Assembly: GCF_000313135.1 (NCBI RefSeq)
Contig: NW_004457671.1
Coordinates: forward strand, 5,111 to 15,230
Source: Acanthamoeba castellanii str. Neff
Lineage: Eukaryota; Discosea; Longamoebia; Acanthamoebidae
DNA length: 10,120 nucleotides
Direction of reading: 5' to 3'
The position numbers were made by a program, and so were the translations under genes. The notes beneath the pieces were generated by a model. The model was not told where the DNA came from. It did no database searches and worked only from the letters and a program-made list of their open reading frames with translations. How positions within the stretch are numbered: the stretch's first letter is position 1; each line of letters begins with the position of its first letter. Of the stretch, positions 460 through 10,120 are shown in pieces.

Positions 460-474
460 AGTATCAACAACTAC
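460..474. repeat. Target-site duplication, left copy
   Basis: The 15 bases AGTATCAACAACTAC directly abut the A-rich 3' tail of the retrotransposon and are identical to 6585-6599. A perfect 15-bp duplication is typical of target-primed reverse transcription by an AP-endonuclease LINE. Confidence 0.93.
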
Positions 475-494
475 TTTTTTTATTTTTTTATTTT
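475..494 (-). repeat. A-rich 3' tail of the LINE
   Basis: On the - strand the element ends in runs of A interrupted by single T (TAAAA, TAAAAAAA, TAAAAAA), immediately before the target-site duplication. This marks the 3' end of the retrotransposed RNA. The regular T interruptions suggest a short tandem tail of the (TAAAAAA)n kind rather than simple polyadenylation. Confidence 0.85.
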
Positions 495-504
495 AAGTTG
501 GATT

Positions 505-510
505 TTTATT
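505..510 (-). terminator. Possible polyadenylation signal AATAAA of the LINE
   Basis: The - strand reads CTCAATAAAAATCC, with a canonical AATAAA about 10 bases before the A-rich tail and downstream of the ORF2 terminal stop. Position fits, but the motif is short and its use is unproven. Confidence 0.5.
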
Positions 511-526
511 GAGTCCGTTACCGCCA

Positions 527-549
527 GCTTAAGGGTCAATCCCTTAAGC
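527..549 (-). promoter_or_regulatory. 3' UTR hairpin of the LINE
   Basis: A perfect 9-bp inverted repeat (GCTTAAGGG / CCCTTAAGC) encloses a 5-base loop, about 30 bases from the A-rich tail. In the element RNA it forms a stem with an AUUGA loop. In stringent LINEs (for example the UnaL2 type) a 3' stem-loop is recognised by the element's own RT to start cDNA synthesis; assigning that role here is inference from position and symmetry. Confidence 0.6.
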
Positions 550-633
550 GACTGCACGTTGGTGAAAGTTTCCATCCTCGGCCGGGTCGTTTCTCCTCGT
601 GGTAACACCCACTCTGTTTGTTGTCTTATTCCT

Positions 634-1017
634 CTATCCATTCTGTTCTTCTTCTATTTCCATGTGTTCTCTTGTTATCTCCTCTTCCTCTTCGTTCTCT
701 TCGTCTATTCTTGTTACGTGGTTGTGTTCTATCTCTGTTTTTTCTATTATTAATTTCGCTCGTGCTCTATAGATATTCACTGTTCCTTGTGCATACTCAC
801 TGGTATACTCTATCATCCAGTTCTTATTTTGTTTTTCTACTATTCCTTCCTCCTGTTCCTCTCCTTCTTGAGTGCTCTGTTTACAACTGTTTCTCTTTCT
901 ATTGTTTCAGCGGGGGGTATTGGCTCATTTCCTTTTCATACCTTGGTTCGGTTCCAGTGTTGGGGGCGTCCCCCTTGCAGTACTACCTCCTTCCTCTTCT
1001 CTCTTTCTCTTCCTGTT
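634..1017 (-). other. Charged C-terminal tail of LINE ORF2
   Basis: Downstream of the zinc motif the same frame continues for about 125 codons to the TAG at 636-634, crossing TGA at 927 and 909. It is first basic (RKRKRE), then glutamate-rich (EENEEEEEITREHMEIEEEQ). I know of no domain here. The absence of TAA or TAG over this length supports it as genuine coding tail rather than 3' UTR. Confidence 0.5.
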
Positions 1018-1200
1018 TCAAGCATTTGTCTTTTGGGCTTTCCCAGCCCATTCCCTTGGGAGGAGCCCAAGGAGGATCACTGCCTTACAGCAGCTGTCAT
1101 CTCCGACCCACACTCCAATGCTTGTTGCCTGTCTGTGCGTTTCGTCAATGATTTTATATATCTTTTTAAGTGCCTTTTCTCTTATTTCTTTTGTCTTGTC

Positions 1201-1254
1201 ACATCTCCCTAAGGTGTGTGGTACGTCCTCAACAGCCTCTTTACACAGGGGGCA
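1201..1254 (-). other. CCHC zinc-binding motif of LINE ORF2
   Basis: The peptide CPLCKEAVEDVPHTLGRC has the spacing C-X2-C-X8-H-X4-C, the same pattern as the zinc-binding motif found downstream of RT or RNase H in many non-LTR elements. It is probably a nucleic-acid-binding module needed for target-primed integration. All four ligands are intact. The surrounding open segment runs from 1458 to 1018 and includes a tryptophan-rich helical lead-in (VAWKVAWKL, THVWWMRNC). Confidence 0.85.
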
Positions 1255-1611
1255 CCACACCCCTTCATTGTTCATTGCCTCTTCAGCATCCATGGTACAA
1301 TTCCTCATCCACCATACATGTGTTCCAATCACACTTCTCCTCAATCTCATTTTGTGGATAAGATTTAGATTTTTCTCATCTTTATAATTCGGTCTATGGG
1401 TCAACTTCCAAGCCACCTTCCATGCGACTTCATCTTTTGTCGTGATGCCCTCACACATCTTTGATTTAAGCCCCTTTTTGTATATTTTGTTGTTAGTTGA
1501 TTTGATTAGTCTTCATGTGCTTGAGTCCCTCCACTGTCCATCTATGTATACCCCCATATCTGTTTCATGATCTTTTAGGTGGGTGAATGTTGGAGGGTCT
1601 GGTTTTTGTGT

Positions 1612-2103
1612 GCCTGCACTTGCTAGCGCGTCAGCTGCTTTGTTTCCCTTCACCACTGTGCTGAATAGGGGTCCCCACTTTTCTTTCATCATCTGGAACC
1701 TTTTGTTCCACGCTTTGTCGTTCTTTCTAGACACTAATTTCTGTTGGATGTGGCTATAGATATGTGAGCACTGTGTGAACCATCCTTGTTCTGTTCTTTT
1801 CCTGATCTCTTTGTGTATTCTCCTTTCAACTGTGCATCTGGTGTGGATGCTCCTCTGGTATGGGTGGTCTATTAGTTGTTTTACAAGTATGCATACTGAT
1901 TCATTATCTGTTATAATGTGTATATCTGGCATGTCTGCAGCGATCTTGAGCGCTTGGAGCATGGCCTGTAGTTCGGCGTTGTTGGATGTTTGGTCTCCGA
2001 CAGTGTGCTCTGCTGTGTTCAGCGGGCTATTGGCTGAGAAGTACACTCCAAACCCCACCTTCTCCTTTGTCTTAGATCCATCTGTCCACACAAGTGTTTT
2101 GTC
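1612..2103 (-). other. RNase H domain of LINE ORF2
   Basis: RNase H type 1 degrades the RNA strand of the RNA-DNA hybrid. In the open segment starting at 2169 the catalytic carboxylates are visible: D30 (WTDGS), E66 (NNAELQA), D88 (IITDNES) and D180 (KGNKAADALA). A His at 140 (YSHIQQK) is in the region where the conserved flexible-loop His is expected. The domain looks intact, although the frame is closed by TGA just before it (2172-2170) and after it (1515-1513). Confidence 0.9.
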
Positions 2104-2169
2104 ATTGATTCCTTTGTGGACTAAATCCCCTCTTGCTAACCTATTAACCTTCCACTGTTTCCATTGCAT

Positions 2170-2583
2170 TCATATTTTGTGTAGGATTCTACTTTGCAGC
2201 ATATCCTGACATGTATTACACATTGCATTAGGTCTACTTGTTTCCTTGTAAGGTGTCTCCCCCATGGTCGCCATTACCTCTTTAAATGGTTTCAGTTGGG
2301 GGTTTTGGGGGATCATGTCTCTTAGTCATTGGAGTTGTGTGTCATTCATTACTCCATGTGCGTTTTTCCTTGCATTGTGTCGGTTTAGTTGCATGGGTTT
2401 ACTGATCTCCTGTGGTAGTTCTAAGTTGTTGCATATGTCATCCTTTCTTTCTTTAGTTTCCAGCACTAGATCCAGTTTGTACTTCCTCACCACTGTTATG
2501 AGATGGTATGATGTCAGCATTCTCCTTCCTTCTCCCCCATCTTCCACTCCTTTGATAGTGAATACCTCTCTCTCTCCAATGTG
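2170..2583 (-). other. RT to RNase H connection segment of LINE ORF2
   Basis: About 138 codons in the RT frame link the RT thumb region to RNase H, interrupted by TGA at 2328-2326 and 2172-2170 only. It contains a CNTC pair and lysine-rich helices. No separate domain is recognised. Frame continuity without TAA or TAG is the evidence that it belongs to ORF2. Confidence 0.65.
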
Positions 2584-3595
2584 TCATATGCAGCTCATGT
2601 TATTAATGATAGCACGCTGGCCTAGTGAGTCTGGTCCTTTCAGGACTTGGTTGATCGCACACCCTAGGAAGACTGCGTCCTGCATGTTTTCCATACAGGT
2701 AAGCCCCATTCCCCTGTCTTTCATTTCCATCCATAACCAGTTGGATGGGCAGTCCCTTCTTATTTGTAGTGCATGCTTAACCACCTTCTTCATGATTATG
2801 TCTATTTTCCAGAGGAGTGGGGTGGTGTAGTTCACAATACTCATACCATATTCTACCACCATGCTTGTGATCACATTTATCAGGTGCGTCTTTTGTGATG
2901 CTGTTATTTGTTTGTGGTACAGCCCATTTATTATCTGGTTAAATTTCTTGTTGATTGTATGTATGTGGGTATCCCACTTTAGGTCAAGCGCCATATGAAT
3001 TCCCAGGTATTGGTACGTTCCCTCTGGCTTCAGTTTTTCAACTTGGTTGCCCTTGTTGGTTATTGGTGTGAAAGTGCTACTGACGTCATTCGTGGTGTAT
3101 GCTGATTTGGTGGCTTTTATTTGTAGTCTGCTATCCTGACAGAACTTACTCAGTTCCATCCATAGTTTGTTCATTCCATCTGCAGTCTCACTAAGGATTG
3201 CAATGTCATCCGCGAAGGCTATTGCTCCAATTATATTCCTGCTCTCCATTTGGTACCCACTCTTGTTCTGGTGTAGTTTTTTGATGATTGGGTTGACGAA
3301 TATATTGAAGAGCAGGGGTGAGAGTGGATCTCCTTGTCTTATGCCCTGTGTGATGTGAATAGGATCTGTCTTGCCATAGTTGGTAAATATACTAATGGTG
3401 TTATCCATGTACATGTTCCTGATCAGGTTCACCAGGTTCAGTGGGAATCCATACACTGTGAGGGTGTTGTACATTCTTTCCAATGGGACACTATCATAGG
3501 CTCCAGCTATGTTGATGTAAGTAATGTGTATTTGCTTGTTCATATAGTTCGCCTCCTCCATCACTCCTCTCAGTGCATGTATTTTTCGTCAGTCA
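2584..3595 (-). other. Reverse transcriptase domain of LINE ORF2, catalytic Asp substituted, fingers missing
   Basis: This domain copies the element RNA into DNA. From 3564 downward, motif A reads YINIAGAYDSVP, motif B QGIRQGDPLSPLLFNIF, motif C AFADDIAIL, and the palm/thumb continues to YQYLGIHM and beyond; all are typical of non-LTR RTs. Two defects are visible. First, the motif A residue that should be the catalytic Asp (hhxDxxxAYD in the family) is Asn (AAC at 3513-3511). Second, the finger motifs normally upstream of motif A (the RPIS-like and Q-GF-like motifs) are absent; the readable part starts at RKIHALRGVMEEA. The second and third catalytic Asp (FADD) are intact. The frame closes at TGA 2586-2584. 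Confidence 0.92.
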
Positions 3596-3818
3596 TGTCC
3601 CTTTCTTCTAATCTGGGTACATGTTTTGTTGCTTTTAGGAGTCTCCAGAGAAGCTTCTCTTGTGTGTTCTGTTCCAGGTTCACTTTGGCTCTTAGCAGCA
3701 CCACTGCATCTATTCTGTTGTGTACCTCCTTCCTCCTTTTCCTTTCCTGTCCCCAGTTCTTGTTTGACATTACACTTTGTTTGTTAGGTTGGTGATCTTC
3801 TTTTGCAGTCCTCTGTCA

Positions 3819-4634
3819 GATGATCCAGTCCACCGCCAGTACTAGTGATTCTGAAATGGTCCTTGCACTCCTGTTTATGTCTTTGTCAGTGGGGTTCCCT
3901 TCTAATGTGAATTCCTTGTACTTCAGGTCATTGCATACATCATTGTTGAACATATTCCATTCGTCCATGGATAGGTTGGTAGGTATCCTCCTCTGTTCTA
4001 CTTGTTCTCCCTTGAAGGTATGTAACAGTTTGTTCTTCTCCTTTTTATATGTACCTATCTTCTGGTCTTTCTGATCCAGTGTCATGTTCCAGTCTCCCCC
4101 CAGTATTTTATCTCCTTTGATTTCCTTTGTCCATTTGGTCAGTCTCTTATAGAAGTCACACTTCTCTTTTGTTCTGGTTGCTGGTGTGTAAACGCTCACT
4201 AGGGTTAGTGTATTGTTGTTTGTGATTATCTTTGCTGTGCTGATTCTTCCTTTCGCCCAATCCTCTGTAGGCGTAATGTCACTTACCAGTCCCATCAAGT
4301 CATTGTGTATCAGCACAGCTGTCCCCCACTTTGCTGTGAGTCTGCGTGTAGCAAGTGGGTGAACCAGTGGTTTGTTCTTTGTTGGTAGTTCTAATTCCAT
4401 ATCCATTTGCTCTTCTTCGTTCTCCATTTGTACTTGGTTTTTTTGAATATATCTCTGTGAGAGACAGTTGTGGAAGCCCTTATATCCGTCCAGTGTTGCA
4501 TATCTCCCTTTAGTTTTGTCGCACTTAAGTTCTTGTATCATTATTATGTCTGGATGGTGTTTGTTGGCCCACTCCTGTAGTTCGGCTTTCTTGTCTTCCC
4601 AACCCCCATTTATATTTATGGTAATTATCTTAAG
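3819..4634 (-). other. AP-like endonuclease domain of LINE ORF2
   Basis: This exonuclease-endonuclease-phosphatase fold nicks the target DNA to prime reverse transcription. With numbering from the ATG at 4763, visible motifs are IITININGG (45-54), DIIMIQE (72-78, the metal-binding Glu at 78), AVLIHN (149-154), LVSVYTP (188-194), GGDWNM (222-227) and LAVDWII (309-315), in family order. The frame then meets TGA 3818-3816; past it the same frame reads KEDHQP, which could be the final SDH-type motif with the catalytic His, though it lies closer to VDWII than usual. A basic linker (KNWGQERKRRKEVHNR) follows to about 3570. Confidence 0.9.
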
Positions 4635-4708
4635 TGTTTTGTTTTTAATCAAATTGTTCTCAACGCCTGTGGAGGGTAAAGGTTCATTTGTTGGTGTCAT
4701 GTTTGTCA

Positions 4709-6511
4709 TCACAGTGTCTGGGTGTGGGGGACAGGTTGTTCCTCCGGTGGTGTGTTGGTCCATTTCTTGTTGACGATGTCAACTTTGCACAGGTTGATCC
4801 CATCAAAGGTGATCTCCCCTTTTTTCTTGTCCAAGTGGATGGCGTCTTCAAGTGACTTGCACAGGACATGTGCACAACCCTTGAACTGTTTGTTCTTCTG
4901 GTTGTGGATGAGGTGTATGGTGCAGTGCATGTGGTGCACCTTAAGGAGCAGCTTGCTGATTATGGTGGGTGGCAGTTTGGTCAGTCCCCTGATCCACCTG
5001 GTTGTTAAACATAGCCAAGGTTGTTTGTGAGGATTGTGCTTAGTGTTGGTGTTGTGTGTTTCTACCATGAACGGCAGGTACCTGTTTTGGTCAGAGTGTC
5101 TGTAGATGGAGATCATCTTCTGGTGTGGTCTCTTGTTCTTGTTGTAGATATAGTGCTTCTTGAGGAAGGTGTCCAGGTGGTCCATCGTCCAGAATTTGAT
5201 TATGTAGCCTCCCATGATAGTGGTATCTACGTTCTTGTATGGCGTCTTGAGCACACCACACTCTTGGATTATCTGCATCAGTTCTAGGCCACTCCCATCC
5301 ATGATAATCACTAGGGGTCGTTCACGCCCTGCCAGTGTACGATGGGATATCACTCTGACCCCATCAACAATGGTGCCAAGATTCACCTTCACCAGCTCAG
5401 CCCAGACTTGGTCAGCATCAATGTGTCTGTTGAAGACCAGGGTGGCACACTGCTTGTGGGGCTTGATGGTGCTTCCTGCTTCCTCATCAAAGTCATCCAG
5501 GATCTTCTCAATGAACTGTTGGTAGTCCCCCATGTTGTCAATTGGGGTCTTCCAGATCACTACAACCAGGACCAGTTGATCCAACATATCATTGACCATC
5601 TGATGGAGTAGGGTATTGAGCCCCCCAACCTGCACGGCCAAGATGATCCCATCCTGGTGCGCCTCCTTGAGGCATCTCTTCTTCTCAATGTTCTTGAGTA
5701 GGGCATCCGACCAGCGTTCAGCGTTGTTCAGCTGCCTCATCATCAGTCAGTCGTCATTGTCCAGGCGGTATGTCAGGCAGGGTGCGGGTCTCCTGGTCTC
5801 CAATCAGTGGCGCCTCCTAGCATTCTGGATGTTGCTAAGCCTTTGTACCTCCACTTCCTCCTCAGACACTCCCAACGTCAGTTGAAACTCTCAGATTGCC
5901 TGCAGTAACTCTGCAACCTTAGTTTTTTCCTTCAAGCTGGCCCAAGAGTCCACCAAGTCTGTCTTCTTCCTCTTCTTCGTTCTGTCCTCTTGCTCATTGT
6001 TGCTGATCCCATCTTCATCTGGGTCTGAGTTGTTTTCTTGTTCTTCTTCTTCTTCCTCTTCTCCATTTTTTTCACTCATACTCATCTCATCCATCTCCAT
6101 CCTCTTCCACCGTGTTGGGTTGAGTAGATTTATTTTGTTGTTCTCCGGCTCAATACATTGTCTAAACAAGGGTGTTTCCATCCGCCACTTTACCTTTTTA
6201 GGTATGTCTAGTTTTTTAAGCCTTCGTTTTCGGAGCTTTGAGGTGTCTTTTAAGGTGTGGTTATTACGTTTATTAACATAGTGTTGTGGCGTCTTATTTA
6301 TTATTAGTTTGAGAGGGGTTGTTGCTGTTGCTGTTGTGTAGTTAGTTGGTATTAGCAGAGGAGTGGCGTTTTTATGTGTATTTAAGAGGGGGGAGGGGGA
6401 CACGAATGATGTGGAAAGGGTTAAATGGGTTAATGAGTTTGCAGGTGTGCCAGTATACAAGTGTAAGGACACTATAATAGCATGTGACCCCGTTGATACA
6501 TGGTTGGTCAT
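4709..6511 (-). pseudogene. LINE ORF1: RNA-binding protein with RRM-like C terminus, broken by TGA codons
   Basis: ORF1 proteins of LINEs bind the element RNA and act as nucleic-acid chaperones. One frame is open from the element's 5' end to TGATGA at 4711-4706, apart from TGA at 5893, 5806 and 5749 (first base, - strand). The first in-frame ATG is at 6511, preceded in frame by TGA 6547-6545. A later ATG at 6181 is also credible, because the Ser/Thr/Asn-rich stretch before it could be 5' leader. After 6181 there is a glutamate-rich tract (EKNGEEEEEEEQE), then a basic cluster (TKKRKKTD) resembling a nuclear localisation signal, a middle region of mixed alpha/beta character, and an RRM-like end. 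No CCHC knuckle, as in many ORF1 proteins, was found. The last 55 bases overlap the start of ORF2 in another frame. Confidence 0.8.
4769..4930 (-). other. RRM-like domain at the C terminus of LINE ORF1
   Basis: In the segment starting at 5743, residues from about 272 read CTIHLIHN (RNP2-like), then KGCAHVLC (RNP1-like: K-G-x-A-x-V), LEDAIHL (helix 2), and ITFDGINLCKVDIV (strand 4). Order and spacing match an RNA recognition motif. RNP1 lacks the usual aromatics at two positions, so RNA contacts may differ. RRM folds occur in ORF1 of several LINE groups. Confidence 0.6.
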
Positions 6512-6584
6512 CCACCGGCTCAAAAATCCATCTCTTTCAAACCATCATTTGATGCGTGTGCCTCTCCCGGCTCCATCTTTTTCC

Positions 6585-6599
6585 AGTATCAACAACTAC
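6585..6599. repeat. Target-site duplication, right copy
   Basis: This copy is identical over 15 bases to 460-474 and lies directly before the 5' end of the - strand retrotransposon. Removing 475-6599 restores the inferred empty site. Confidence 0.93.
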
Positions 6600-6884: not shown

Positions 6885-8204
6885 ATGGCCCGCCCTTCCC
6901 ACCATCATGAATTCCTCCTCCTACTTGCAGTTGCCTTCCTATCTGTTGGGCTGGCCCGGCAGATGCCCGACCCACACCGCTACATGCCGCACTCCTTTCT
7001 CAAGGTGGACACCACCAGACTCGACCAGTGGCGCCCGGCTCTAGACGACGCCGCCACCGACGCCGTGCGGGTCATCAACTCCCACCGCCCGCGCGACCAA
7101 CACCTCGCCCTGGACCAGGTCCAGACCGACGGTGTGCAGGTCGGGCGCGCCCTGGCCTTCTCCGGCACCATCGAGCTGGCCGACCACCACCACCCTCCAC
7201 ACCCCTCGGCCTACACCTTCACCCAGCACTCGGACTTCATCCACCTCCAGCCCGTCCAGCCCCTCGCGCCGCTGTGGGCACTGCCCTCACCCAGCGCTTC
7301 GCTGAAAACTGAGCCCGTCGATCAGCTCCCCCAGCCCGACGAGGACCCCGTGTTCCCTGAGGTGGAGCTCGAAGGTCCGCTGGTGCTCCATCTCGACCAG
7401 CAGCTGTACGACCCGGTCCTGCGGCTGCCGCACTCGGTCGAGGTGGGCGCAGTGCGGGTCATCAGGGTCGGACCCGGCGTGCGGCTGCGCGTTGGCGGCG
7501 TGAGCCAGATGAAGCTACGGTCGTCGCTCGACGTGCAGCGCAACATCAAGCTGCTCGCGCTGATGGACGAGAACAACGCCACGACAGCCAATCTTCATCA
7601 GCAGGGCGAAATGGACGTGCCTGAGCTCGAGCTCAAGCTGGTCGACCAGGGCCGGGCGTTCCGCATGTGGTCCTCATCGGCCGAGCGGGTCAAGGCCAAG
7701 AGGCGATCGGCCCACGTGCTCGAGCTCCTCCCAACTGCCGCCAGCCCCTCTGCTGACGTCAGCAGCCAGGTTACGACGACCAGCCACGGCCGCACCGATC
7801 TGGCGCCTAGGTCCGCCTCTGATGCGAGCCTGTGGGTCCTGTCTCAGGCCAACCTCCTACGGGGCGTGATAGGCGCCTTTGCCCAGGCGGCCGAGGAGCA
7901 GCCGGTGGTACTGCGTCGCGTGGTCGAGGCCAAGGCCGAGGCCGTCAGCGTGCTCGTGATCCCGATGACCCTCAGGGAGCAGCCCCACAACAACCATGGC
8001 GGCAAGACGTCTCAGTGGCAGGTCGTGGTCACCCGCGGCGCGGACGGCAGGCACACGGTGGTGTCGCACCAGCAGCTGGTCCAGCAGGAGAGCCACGTCA
8101 CCGTGGCGCCGTGGGTGTGGGCCAACACGACCACGCCGGCGGTCATGCGCACCGTGCAGCTCCTCGAGAAGAATGCCCACCGACCCGCCCAAGCATCCAG
8201 CTGA
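6885..8204 (+). CDS. Putative secreted protein, cysteine-free, unknown family
   Basis: A single intronless frame encodes 439 residues with strongly G/C-ending codons, ending at TGA 8202-8204. Residues 1-25 look like a signal peptide: MARPSHHHEF, a hydrophobic core LLLLAVAFLSVGLA, then a polar cleavage region, so the protein probably enters the secretory pathway. No later membrane segment is seen. There are two N-glycosylation sequons (N231-A-T, N414-T-T), a His/Pro-rich patch at 100-120, a proline/acid stretch at 135-160, a basic KAKRR (270-274) that could be a processing site, and no cysteine at all. The C-terminal part (about 315-430) looks like alternating strands and helices. The ATG at 6885 is chosen because the signal peptide starts there. 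I recognise no catalytic motif or family; the function is unknown. Confidence 0.82.
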   Translation: MARPSHHHEFLLLLAVAFLSVGLARQMPDPHRYMPHSFLKVDTTRLDQWRPALDDAATDAVRVINSHRPRDQHLALDQVQTDGVQVGRALAFSGTIELADHHHPPHPSAYTFTQHSDFIHLQPVQPLAPLWALPSPSASLKTEPVDQLPQPDEDPVFPEVELEGPLVLHLDQQLYDPVLRLPHSVEVGAVRVIRVGPGVRLRVGGVSQMKLRSSLDVQRNIKLLALMDENNATTANLHQQGEMDVPELELKLVDQGRAFRMWSSSAERVKAKRRSAHVLELLPTAASPSADVSSQVTTTSHGRTDLAPRSASDASLWVLSQANLLRGVIGAFAQAAEEQPVVLRRVVEAKAEAVSVLVIPMTLREQPHNNHGGKTSQWQVVVTRGADGRHTVVSHQQLVQQESHVTVAPWVWANTTTPAVMRTVQLLEKNAHRPAQASS

Positions 8205-8232
8205 AGATGCATCTCTTCACCATTCTGCTCAC

Positions 8233-8253
8233 ATTCGTGAAGTGCTCACGAAT
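8233..8253 (+). other. Hairpin in the 3' UTR of the secreted-protein gene
   Basis: ATTCGTGA (8233-8240) and TCACGAAT (8246-8253) are perfect 8-bp inverted repeats around a 5-base loop, 28 bases after the stop codon. It could fold in the mRNA near the 3' end; no role is known. Confidence 0.4.
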
Positions 8254-8265
8254 TGTACAAACAAG

Positions 8266-8271
8266 ATTAAA
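8266..8271 (+). terminator. Possible polyadenylation signal ATTAAA
   Basis: ATTAAA is found 62 bases after the stop codon of the secreted-protein gene, just past a small hairpin. It is the common variant of AATAAA; its use in this organism is not shown. Confidence 0.35.
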
Positions 8272-8642
8272 GCTACTGTTCCCCCACATATCCTTTTGAA
8301 CAAGAGGCCAGGCTGAAACTGGGCATCAGCGTGGGCCAGGCCTAGGCTTGAGATGGGTCACTCTGAAAAACAGAGAATGAGCGGACCGAGCATCTGCAGC
8401 CTGGATACTCGTCGTGATGGAGGCCTCAAGAGAGGTTTGCAGAGCTGCAAGAGAGTTTGCAAGAAGTCAGTTCCTGCCGAGCCACTGTTTCCTTGTTTTT
8501 GCAATCCAAATAGGAATAATATTGCTCACAATTGTAATTGTAATTGGCCAAAAAAGCAAACCCAAACAAAGTTGAAACCAAGAAATATTCAGAACACCAT
8601 TTGTTGTGTTTCGTTGCTGACGGCACAAGTACAAGCAAGACG

Positions 8643-10120
8643 ATGGAGAGCAGCGTGGACGAGGGCCTGTTGGCCGTGGAGCCCTTGGGCAAGGCCTGGG
8701 TGCTGAAGCAATTCGACGAGAACCCTCGCCTGCACCGTATGCTCAGCCCTCCGGTGGTGGACAGGCTCACCAACCAAGCGCTGGCTGTCCCCTATGCCAG
8801 TGATTTGGTACCGCCCAACACCTTCTTCCTCATCGTTGATGTTGCGGTAGCACCAATTAATCTCGTGAATTTATTTTATTTTATTTATTTTTCACTGCCA
8901 AAAGGAGTACTTGCATGACCTGGAGGTGGACATGGTACTCAAGAAGACGCTACTCGGTCTCGAAGATCTGCAGATTGGCCAGGAGGTGCCCCATCCCCCT
9001 CCACCAGCATTTTTCTGTGAATCTTTTCTTATTTCATTAACCTCCGCTCCCTGCTGGCGCTGACGTCACCATTTTCACTTCTTCCCTTGTCGTCGCCCAC
9101 AGCTGAGCTTTTTCAAGAAGAACCAACTCGACTCCGAAGGTACATTCGATCCCACGCGTACGGCACGGTTGCGCTGTGCTTCGTCGCTCACGACACGACA
9201 CGACACGACACGACACGACACGACACGACACGACACGACACGACACGACAGCGTGCCAGCAGTACACGGCGGCGCTCAATGCGGTCAAGGCCAACTTTGG
9301 GAGGGGCGTGGCGAAGAAGCTGCGGCACCATGCTCCCGTGGACACCAAGCCGCAGGAGAGGCAGGGCCGGCCCCTGCTCCCGCGGCTGGTCCGACTGGCC
9401 ATCAAGTTCGGCCTGAGCGAGAAGGAAAAGCTGGCCCTCAACTTCATCGTCGTACAGGCGATTGGTACCGATCACTCACGCGTCTCTCGCTCTGCATCAT
9501 GCGTGTTCTCACCGCACGACACACACGACACACACGACACACACGACACACACGACACACACACACACACAGGGCAAGAGTTCACACGCTCAGGCAATGT
9601 AAAGCTGACAATGAGCGACAGAATCATCGCCAACCGGTTTGGTATTGGTTTCCCTCACTGTGAAGAAAGAAAGCGTCGACTCACGGTTTTTGCGGTCTCT
9701 CGTGTCGCGTCGTGACCAGGTGGAGGAAGGAGGAGCAACTACAGCTTCGAGTCCCTGCTGCGCTATTCGGACATGACCATCAACGAGGGTACGCCGTGTT
9801 TCAGTGTCTCCGCTCCCGCCATACATCACCTTTGCTCTCTCTCCCTCTTTCACAACTGACGCCCAACCCTATACGCCCGCACGGCACACAGCCATTGCAT
9901 TCCTCAAGTCGACCAGGCCCTACCTCACTCAGGGACTGTTCGTTGTCGATAAGACCAGCCCCATGCAAAACGATTACATCGACATTCCTCATGTACGTCG
10001 TTGCCCTCATTGCGCGTGTCGTCGTGTGCGCCGTGCGTGGTGTGTGCGCGTGCAGTGCTAGTGCTAGTGCGAGCCTGTGTTCATGGTCTTGGTTGTCTTC
10101 TCGCTCGCCCCACAGGAAAC
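8643..10120 (+). CDS. Multi-exon gene of unknown function, 5' part, runs off the right edge
   Basis: Eight exons with GT-AG introns keep one frame: 8643-8846, 8905-8985, 9103-9139, 9252-9464, 9573-9641, 9720-9788, 9892-9992 and 10116 onward. Introns are 58-123 bases. About 258 residues are encoded before the last partial exon. The start is ATG 8643 (MESSVDEGLLAVEPLGK). Exon 1 may end at 8840 instead of 8846, since both donors keep frame. The product has no signal peptide or membrane segment; it is mostly helical, with a basic patch (GVAKKLRHHAPVDTK) and the conserved-looking segments LVRLAIKFGLSEKEKLALNF, MSDRIIANRFG, YSFESLLRYSDMTINEAIAF and PYLTQGLFVVD. The LSEKEKLALNF-type helix recalls the N-terminal region of some AAA-type ATPases, but no Walker motif lies in the window, so that is only a guess. 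Exons are GC-rich and end mostly in G/C codons. Confidence 0.8.
9191..9250 (+). repeat. (CGACA)12 microsatellite at an intron 3' end
   Basis: Twelve perfect copies of CGACA fill the second half of intron 3 (9140-9251), and the AG of the acceptor (9250-9251) shares the last base of the repeat. There is no polypyrimidine tract between repeat and splice site. Confidence 0.93.
9517..9570 (+). repeat. (CGACACACA)n minisatellite plus (CA)n at an intron 3' end
   Basis: Four perfect 9-base units CGACACACA are followed by CGA and a run of CA dinucleotides, ending immediately before the acceptor AG at 9571-9572 of intron 4 (9465-9572). The motif is clearly related to the CGACA repeat of the previous intron. 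Confidence 0.9.

What the first reader, a model, noticed from the sequence alone, without database searches (positions are those of the whole stretch)
634..6511. All interior in-frame stops of the retrotransposon are TGA
Over roughly 1,980 codons of ORF1 and ORF2, I count 11 in-frame TGA codons and no TAA or TAG before the terminal TAG at 636-634. The - strand TGA first bases are 5893, 5806 and 5749 (ORF1), 3818 (endonuclease frame), and 2586, 2328, 2172, 1515, 1020, 927 and 909 (RT frame). Ordinary random decay should also produce TAA and TAG. Two explanations compete. TGA may be read as an amino acid (Trp fits contexts such as HKI-TGA-MQWKQW; about 20 TGG Trp codons occur in the same frame), through recoding or an element acquired from a UGA=Trp lineage. 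Or CGA Arg codons may have become TGA by deamination of methylated CpG. The host gene at 6885 ends in TGA, so whole-genome reassignment is unlikely.
Basis: partly seen in the sequence, partly recalled or inferred. Interest (0 to 1): 0.75.

Follow-up and report, generated by a model that had tools for sequence, protein, structure and literature searches.

The report
Retrotransposon decayed by CpG methylation
A dead copy of a jumping gene in the amoeba Acanthamoeba has many TGA stop codons most likely because its methylated CG pairs mutated to TG, turning arginine codons into stops; this is ordinary decay, not a changed genetic code.

Summary
All 11 listed in-frame stops are TGA at the stated places; a twelfth TGA (3591) lies at a frame break where part of the reverse transcriptase is missing. 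Ordinary decay would give 11 of 11 TGA with probability about 3e-7.

The cause is most likely CpG decay, not recoding. CpG is depleted inside the element (observed/expected 0.31) but not in the flanks (0.90-0.92). Close relatives (82-91% identical) cover 5 of 11 sites and read Arg at four, Gln at one, Trp at none. Over the genome's 31 reverse-transcriptase matches, interior stops are 23 TGA, 2 TAA, 0 TAG; the two closest pairs carry CGA or CAA opposite TGA. Patterns find tRNA-Trp only with CCA; the one UCA tRNA seen is tRNA-Sec. In the host strain, Acanthamoeba castellanii Neff, methylation is almost only at CpG and favours LINEs (PMC12344493, passages).

The element is a minus-strand LINE, 475-6584, with a 15-base target-site duplication and poly-A tail, dead also by deletion. 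Six of 11 sites have no close relative; methylation of this copy was not measured.

The parts
460..474 (.). target-site duplication, copy at the element's 3' end
   Evidence: exact 15-base match to 6585-6599
475..6584 (-). non-LTR retrotransposon (LINE) copy, 3' poly-A tail at 475 onward (T-run on + strand)
   Evidence: bounded by the duplication; EN, RT, RNase H domains; CpG o/e 0.31 over 520-6510 against 0.90-0.92 in flanks
4709..6544 (-). ORF1 frame with TGA at 5893, 5806, 5749 and terminal TGA at 4711-4709; start codon not settled
   Evidence: no Pfam family at E 0.1 for 4709-5746 or 5891-6544
3573..4778 (-). ORF2 endonuclease frame, TGA at 3818
   Evidence: Exo_endo_phos 1.8e-11 for 3816-4778; stops
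3570..3600 (-). frame break and missing 5' part of the reverse transcriptase; TGA at 3591 and 3572
   Evidence: RVT_1 match starts at profile position 57 of 205; the first 350 residues of the 556-residue C9 frame have no significant match in the window
634..3588 (-). ORF2 RT - RNase H frame with a weak C-terminal zinc-binding match; TGA at 2586, 2328, 2172, 1515, 1020, 927, 909; terminal TAG 636-634
   Evidence: RVT_1 6.8e-25, RNase_H 2.8e-11, zf-RVT 0.004, below its cut-off
6585..6599 (.). target-site duplication, copy at the element's 5' end

Best explanation
The window holds a dead LINE copy in the nuclear genome of Acanthamoeba castellanii Neff. After insertion the host methylated its CpG sites (inferred here; shown in print for LINEs of this strain as a class). 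Methylated C deaminates to T. On the coding strand this turns CGA arginine codons into TGA stops; the same event on the other strand gives CAA (Gln). CpG decay inside a codon can make TGA but not TAA or TAG from a sense codon, so the stops are all TGA. A deletion in the reverse transcriptase disabled the copy as well. TGA is not read as an amino acid.
For: CpG o/e 0.31 in the element against 0.90, 0.90 and 0.92 in three flanking stretches; TG o/e 1.63. CGN arginine codons are 14 against 84 AGA/AGG. Close relatives: P0004 (91%) reads Arg at 2586; P0032 (82%) reads Arg at 1515, 1020, 927 and Gln at 909; the more distant P0002 (57%) also reads Arg at 2586. Of residue differences reachable by one base, 9 of 14 (P0004) and 22 of 56 (P0032) are of the CpG-decay type in the window, against 4-12% expected from random one-base changes (P at most 7e-6 and 4e-10; that null ignores selection on residues). 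Over 31 reverse-transcriptase matches of the genome: 23 TGA, 2 TAA, 0 TAG. At TGA sites of other elements, L038 (82%) has CGA twice and L039 (87%) has CAA twice. The C9 relative's two TGAs face Lys and Arg of the window. Neff methylation is almost only at CpG and is enriched on LINE and LTR elements, younger copies particularly (PMC12344493, passages).
Against: Six of 11 sites have no close relative: 5893, 5806, 5749 and 3818 have none at all; 2328 reads Asn (P0002) or Ala (C203); 2172 reads Cys or, in an overlapping frame, Val (C203). C9 reads Gly at 2586 and His at 1515, and C203 reads Glu or, in another frame, Arg at 1515. In one search (11 TGA sites of other elements), one site (L048) faces TGG, and three more (L030, two of L036) face CAG/AAG, CAC/TCA and CAC/ACC, with no CGA seen. 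The C203 relative has low CpG (0.15) but mixed stops over four overlapping aligned stretches (6 TGA, 6 TAG, 2 TAA), partly out of frame; L019 has 1 TGA and 1 TAA. The correlation between CpG level and TGA density over 30 loci is weak (Spearman -0.35, P 0.059). CA o/e is not raised in the element (1.26, against 0.96-1.35 outside). Methylation of this very copy was not looked at.
Confidence: 0.95

Rival explanations
1. TGA is read as Trp in this element, through a suppressor tRNA or because the element came from a UGA=Trp lineage.
For: All interior stops are TGA. One TGA in another element (L048) aligns with TGG.
Against: None of the 7 sites covered by any relative shows Trp. The tRNA-Trp pattern finds 9 copies with CCA and no UCA counterpart. 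The RT domain is partly deleted, so this copy has no complete enzyme to preserve. The host gene beside it ends in TGA.
Confidence: 0.01
2. The TGAs are selenocysteine codons; the genome has a tRNA-Sec with UCA anticodon.
For: tRNA-Sec found in L081. Cys stands at 2172 in the distant C203 relative.
Against: Close relatives carry Arg or Gln, not Cys, at 5 of 5 covered sites. No SECIS element was searched for.
Confidence: 0.005
3. Ordinary random decay happened to give only TGA.
For: The copy is decayed by deletion as well. The C203 relative has mixed stops.
Against: P about 3e-7 for 11 of 11; the same bias recurs over the genome's RT matches (23 of 25 stops).
Confidence: 0.01
4. Introns remove the TGA codons from the transcript.
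For: The public gene model P0029 (ACA1_143050) omits two stretches of ORF1 (compared by eye).
Against: P0032 aligns without gaps across four TGA sites at 82% identity, so the codons are coding in a relative. The stretches omitted from the model lie within 4709-5746, where no interior TGA lies.
Confidence: 0.01

Closest known systems
LINE copies decayed at methylated CpG (Acanthamoeba LINE methylation in PMC12344493, passages; mammalian L1, recalled)
   Same: LINE, CpG depletion confined to the element, stops biased to TGA, host with CpG methylation enriched on LINEs
   Different: nothing categorical seen; methylation of this copy itself not measured here, and the LINE clade was not assigned
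UGA=Trp nuclear codes (recalled)
   Same: in-frame TGA only
   Different: close relatives have Arg/Gln, not Trp; no UCA tRNA-Trp found
Repeat-induced point mutation of fungi (recalled)
   Same: C-to-T decay of repeats
   Different: RIP favours CpA (recalled) and so makes TAA/TAG; here CpG is the depleted pair and no TAA/TAG lies in frame before the terminal stop

Membership tests
APE-type non-LTR retrotransposon (LINE) | AP-like endonuclease domain | tested here: met
   PF03372 E 1.8e-11
APE-type non-LTR retrotransposon (LINE) | reverse transcriptase | tested here: met
   PF00078 E 6.8e-25, but only from profile position 57 of 205; the first part is missing
APE-type non-LTR retrotransposon (LINE) | target-site duplication and poly-A tail | tested here: met
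   15 exact bases 460-474 and 6585-6599, T-run from 475
APE-type non-LTR retrotransposon (LINE) | mobility of the copy | not testable with these tools
   copy is broken by deletion, frame break and stops
LINE copy decayed at methylated CpG | CpG depletion inside the element, not in flanks | tested here: met
   0.31 against 0.90-0.92
LINE copy decayed at methylated CpG | Arg (or the twin product Gln) at TGA sites in close relatives | tested here: met
   5 of 5 sites covered by relatives at 82-91% identity; 6 of 11 not covered by them
LINE copy decayed at methylated CpG | excess of CpG-type differences to relatives | tested here: met
   9 of 14 (P0004), 22 of 56 (P0032), 17 of 42 (P0003), 22 of 103 (P0002) against 4-12% expected; the null ignores selection
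LINE copy decayed at methylated CpG | CpG methylation of this copy | not tested
   only the class-level result in print: PMC12344493, passages
UGA=Trp recoding | Trp at TGA sites in relatives | tested here: not met
   0 of 7 covered sites
UGA=Trp recoding | tRNA-Trp with UCA anticodon | tested here: not met
   9 CCA copies and no UCA counterpart by pattern; intron-bearing or odd tRNAs would be missed, and only 63 of 805 Rfam tRNA candidates were scored

The most novel reading that the evidence does not exclude
At the sites without close relatives (three in ORF1, one in the endonuclease, two in the RT frame) some TGA might be read through at a low level, so that parts of the element are still translated past them.
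Probability: 0.02. Interest if true: 0.5.

Novelty: new member of a known kind. Interest (0 to 1): 0.12.

Why it matters
It removes a false lead for a changed genetic code. It also suggests that TGA-only stops together with local CpG depletion can mark past CpG methylation of transposons in Acanthamoeba from sequence alone, though the genome-wide link between CpG level and TGA density was weak here. Two searches of the paper library on related wording (10 listings seen of 50 and of 792) showed no title on TGA-only stops in Acanthamoeba LINEs; that is no proof of absence.

Tried and rejected
Near copies in the same genome: none by DNA (best other match C203, 68% over 240 bases) and none for the ORF1 frame; the endonuclease frame finds only C203 at 42%. 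Scans of viral contigs (two) and of genome contigs (one) found no relative. The HSP70 control for the host code (27 matches; stops inside in 2 of them: 1 TGA and 1 TAG in one, 1 TAA in the other) is weak, since HSP70 is poor in Trp (recalled) and introns may lie inside matches. The first tRNA patterns (23 hits against 14 in the control, 46 against 6) did not reach tRNA-Trp; one search did catch the tRNA-Sec gene. They were replaced. The 30 tRNA loci were fetched but not studied. The first stop count over RT loci left minus-strand loci unturned and was replaced. The repeat finder on the two ends given as separate regions could not see the duplication; a script did. The residues opposite TGA over all aligned pairs are a mixture (15 Arg, 13 His, 12 Gln, 11 Trp and others); most pairs are distant, so only pairs of at least 45% identity were read by codon. 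A first reading by eye of site 2172 in an overlapping frame of C203 was wrong and was corrected (Val).
Full report
What is there. On the minus strand, between two exact 15-base copies of a target-site duplication (460-474 and 6585-6599) and next to a T-run at 475 that is the poly-A tail of the minus-strand element, lies one non-LTR retrotransposon. It has an ORF1 frame without a Pfam family, an endonuclease frame (Exo_endo_phos, 1.8e-11), and an RT - RNase H frame (RVT_1 6.8e-25, RNase_H 2.8e-11) with a weak zinc-binding match (zf-RVT 0.004, below its cut-off). The host is taken to be Acanthamoeba castellanii Neff: P0029, a spliced model of part of ORF1, is the public protein ACA1_143050 of that strain, on a contig of 256,284 bases, the length of the window's contig C32.

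The observation. One search confirms all 11 TGAs and the absence of TAA and TAG before the terminal TAG at 636-634. The ORF1 frame ends in TGA at 4711-4709. A further TGA at 3591 and the end of the endonuclease frame at 3572 mark a frame break. The RVT_1 match starts at profile position 57 of 205, and the first 350 residues of the 556-residue C9 frame have no significant match in the window, so part of the reverse transcriptase is missing. The copy is disabled for that reason too. From the codon composition, single mutations would give TGA in 25-26% of new stops at any transition bias tried (1, 2, 4, 8), so 11 of 11 has P about 3e-7.

Why TGA. CpG observed/expected is 0.31 over 520-6510 and 0.90 (1-470), 0.90 (host gene 6885-8204) and 0.92 (8205-10120) outside; TG is 1.63 in the element and 0.86-1.30 outside; CA is 1.26 in the element and 0.96-1.35 outside, so CA is not raised. 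Of 1857 codons, 14 are CGN (4 of them CGA), 84 AGA/AGG, 39 TGG, 11 TGA. A C-to-T change at CpG turns CGA into TGA; the same change on the other strand turns CGA into CAA (general knowledge).

Relatives at the sites. The close ones are P0004 (91% over 204 residues) and P0032 (82% over 352 residues, reaching the end of the frame). They cover 5 of 11 sites: Arg at 2586 (P0004), Arg at 1515, 1020 and 927, Gln at 909 (P0032). More distant: P0002 (57%) has Arg at 2586 and Asn at 2328. C203 (L018) has Cys (TGT) at 2172 in its best stretch and Val in an overlapping frame; at 1515 Glu in its best stretch and Arg (AGG) in an overlapping frame, where the neighbouring residues fit better; and Ala at 2328. 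C9 (L017) has Gly at 2586 and His at 1515. Sites 5893, 5806, 5749 and 3818 are covered by none. Trp is seen at 0 of 7 covered sites. The C9 copy has two TGAs of its own, opposite Lys and Arg of the window.

Kind of difference. Among residue differences to relatives that one base can explain, those of the CpG-decay type in the window number 9 of 14 (P0004), 22 of 56 (P0032), 17 of 42 (P0003), 22 of 103 (P0002), 12 of 27 (P0030), 23 of 80 (P0031), 13 of 62 (P0005) and 14 of 67 (P0006). For the first four, random one-base changes would give 4-12%; the P values run from 6e-16 to 4e-3, weakest for P0002. This null does not model selection for similar residues, so I lean on the two close relatives.

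The rest of the genome. RVT_1 finds 31 matches, the window's own among them; stops inside are 23 TGA, 2 TAA, 0 TAG, spread over 11 matches, 7 of the TGAs in one. In the 30 fetched, 20 TGA and 2 TAA. The link between CpG level and TGA density is weak (Spearman -0.35, P 0.059). One search reads codons at 11 TGA sites in pairs of at least 45% identity. The two TGAs of L043 face CGA and CGA in L038 (82%). The two of L040 face CAA and CAA in L039 (87%). The one of L031 faces CAG in L026 (77%) and CGA in L021 and L022 (46, 45%). One of L048 faces TGG in L049 (73%) and L038 (49%), so that one came from Trp, as ordinary mutation can do. The other of L048 and the one of L049 face each other (TGA in both) and CAG in others. 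The one of L030 faces CAG and AAG; the two of L036 face CAC with TCA, and CAC with ACC (50-57%). So CGA is seen outright at 3 of 11 sites and CAA at 2 more. The C203 relative, CpG 0.15, has 6 TGA, 6 TAG and 2 TAA over four overlapping aligned stretches, some of them out of frame; L019 has 1 TGA and 1 TAA.

Code and tRNAs. The tRNA-Trp pattern gives 42 hits (control 10); 9 are identical, all 9 lie in places that Rfam calls tRNA, and CCA falls on the anticodon (that they are tRNA-Trp is read from the anticodon). The UCA pattern gives 14 hits against 10 in its control, none like those nine. Only 63 of 805 Rfam tRNA candidates were scored, so the tRNA list is partial. The one UCA tRNA seen is tRNA-Sec. 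The neighbouring host gene ends in TGA at 8202-8204.

Literature. PMC12344493 (passages): in Neff, methylation is predominantly at CpG, other contexts are below the non-conversion rate, and LINE and LTR elements are preferentially methylated, particularly younger copies. PMC12210455 (passages): 5-methyl-CG in Neff and strain C3, raised in non-conserved and viral regions and on mobile elements.

Verdict. CpG decay of a dead LINE, most likely after methylation; not recoding. The mechanism at the six sites without close relatives is inferred from the others. That this copy itself is or was methylated is inferred from the published class-level result and from its CpG depletion.

Noticed in passing
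L081 26-109 (-): A selenocysteine tRNA gene (UCA anticodon) in the host genome, called by ARAGORN and Rfam.
   Followed up: partly
window 501-600: The 3' end of the element has 8 CpGs in this 100-base bin, while most bins of the element have 0-3; this non-coding part may have escaped decay.
   Followed up: partly
window 4709-5746 (-): Public gene model ACA1_143050 (P0029) looks like a spliced annotation of ORF1 of this dead element rather than a host gene (compared by eye).
   Followed up: partly
L034 1501-1899: Another reverse-transcriptase piece with 7 TGA and no other stop in 133 codons, CpG o/e 0.16.
   Followed up: partly
P0030 and P0032 (metagenome records): Proteins 82-83% identical to part of ORF1 and to the ORF2 C-terminus, both listed with a 7,924-base contig; relatives open across sites that are stops here exist outside this genome.
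   Followed up: no
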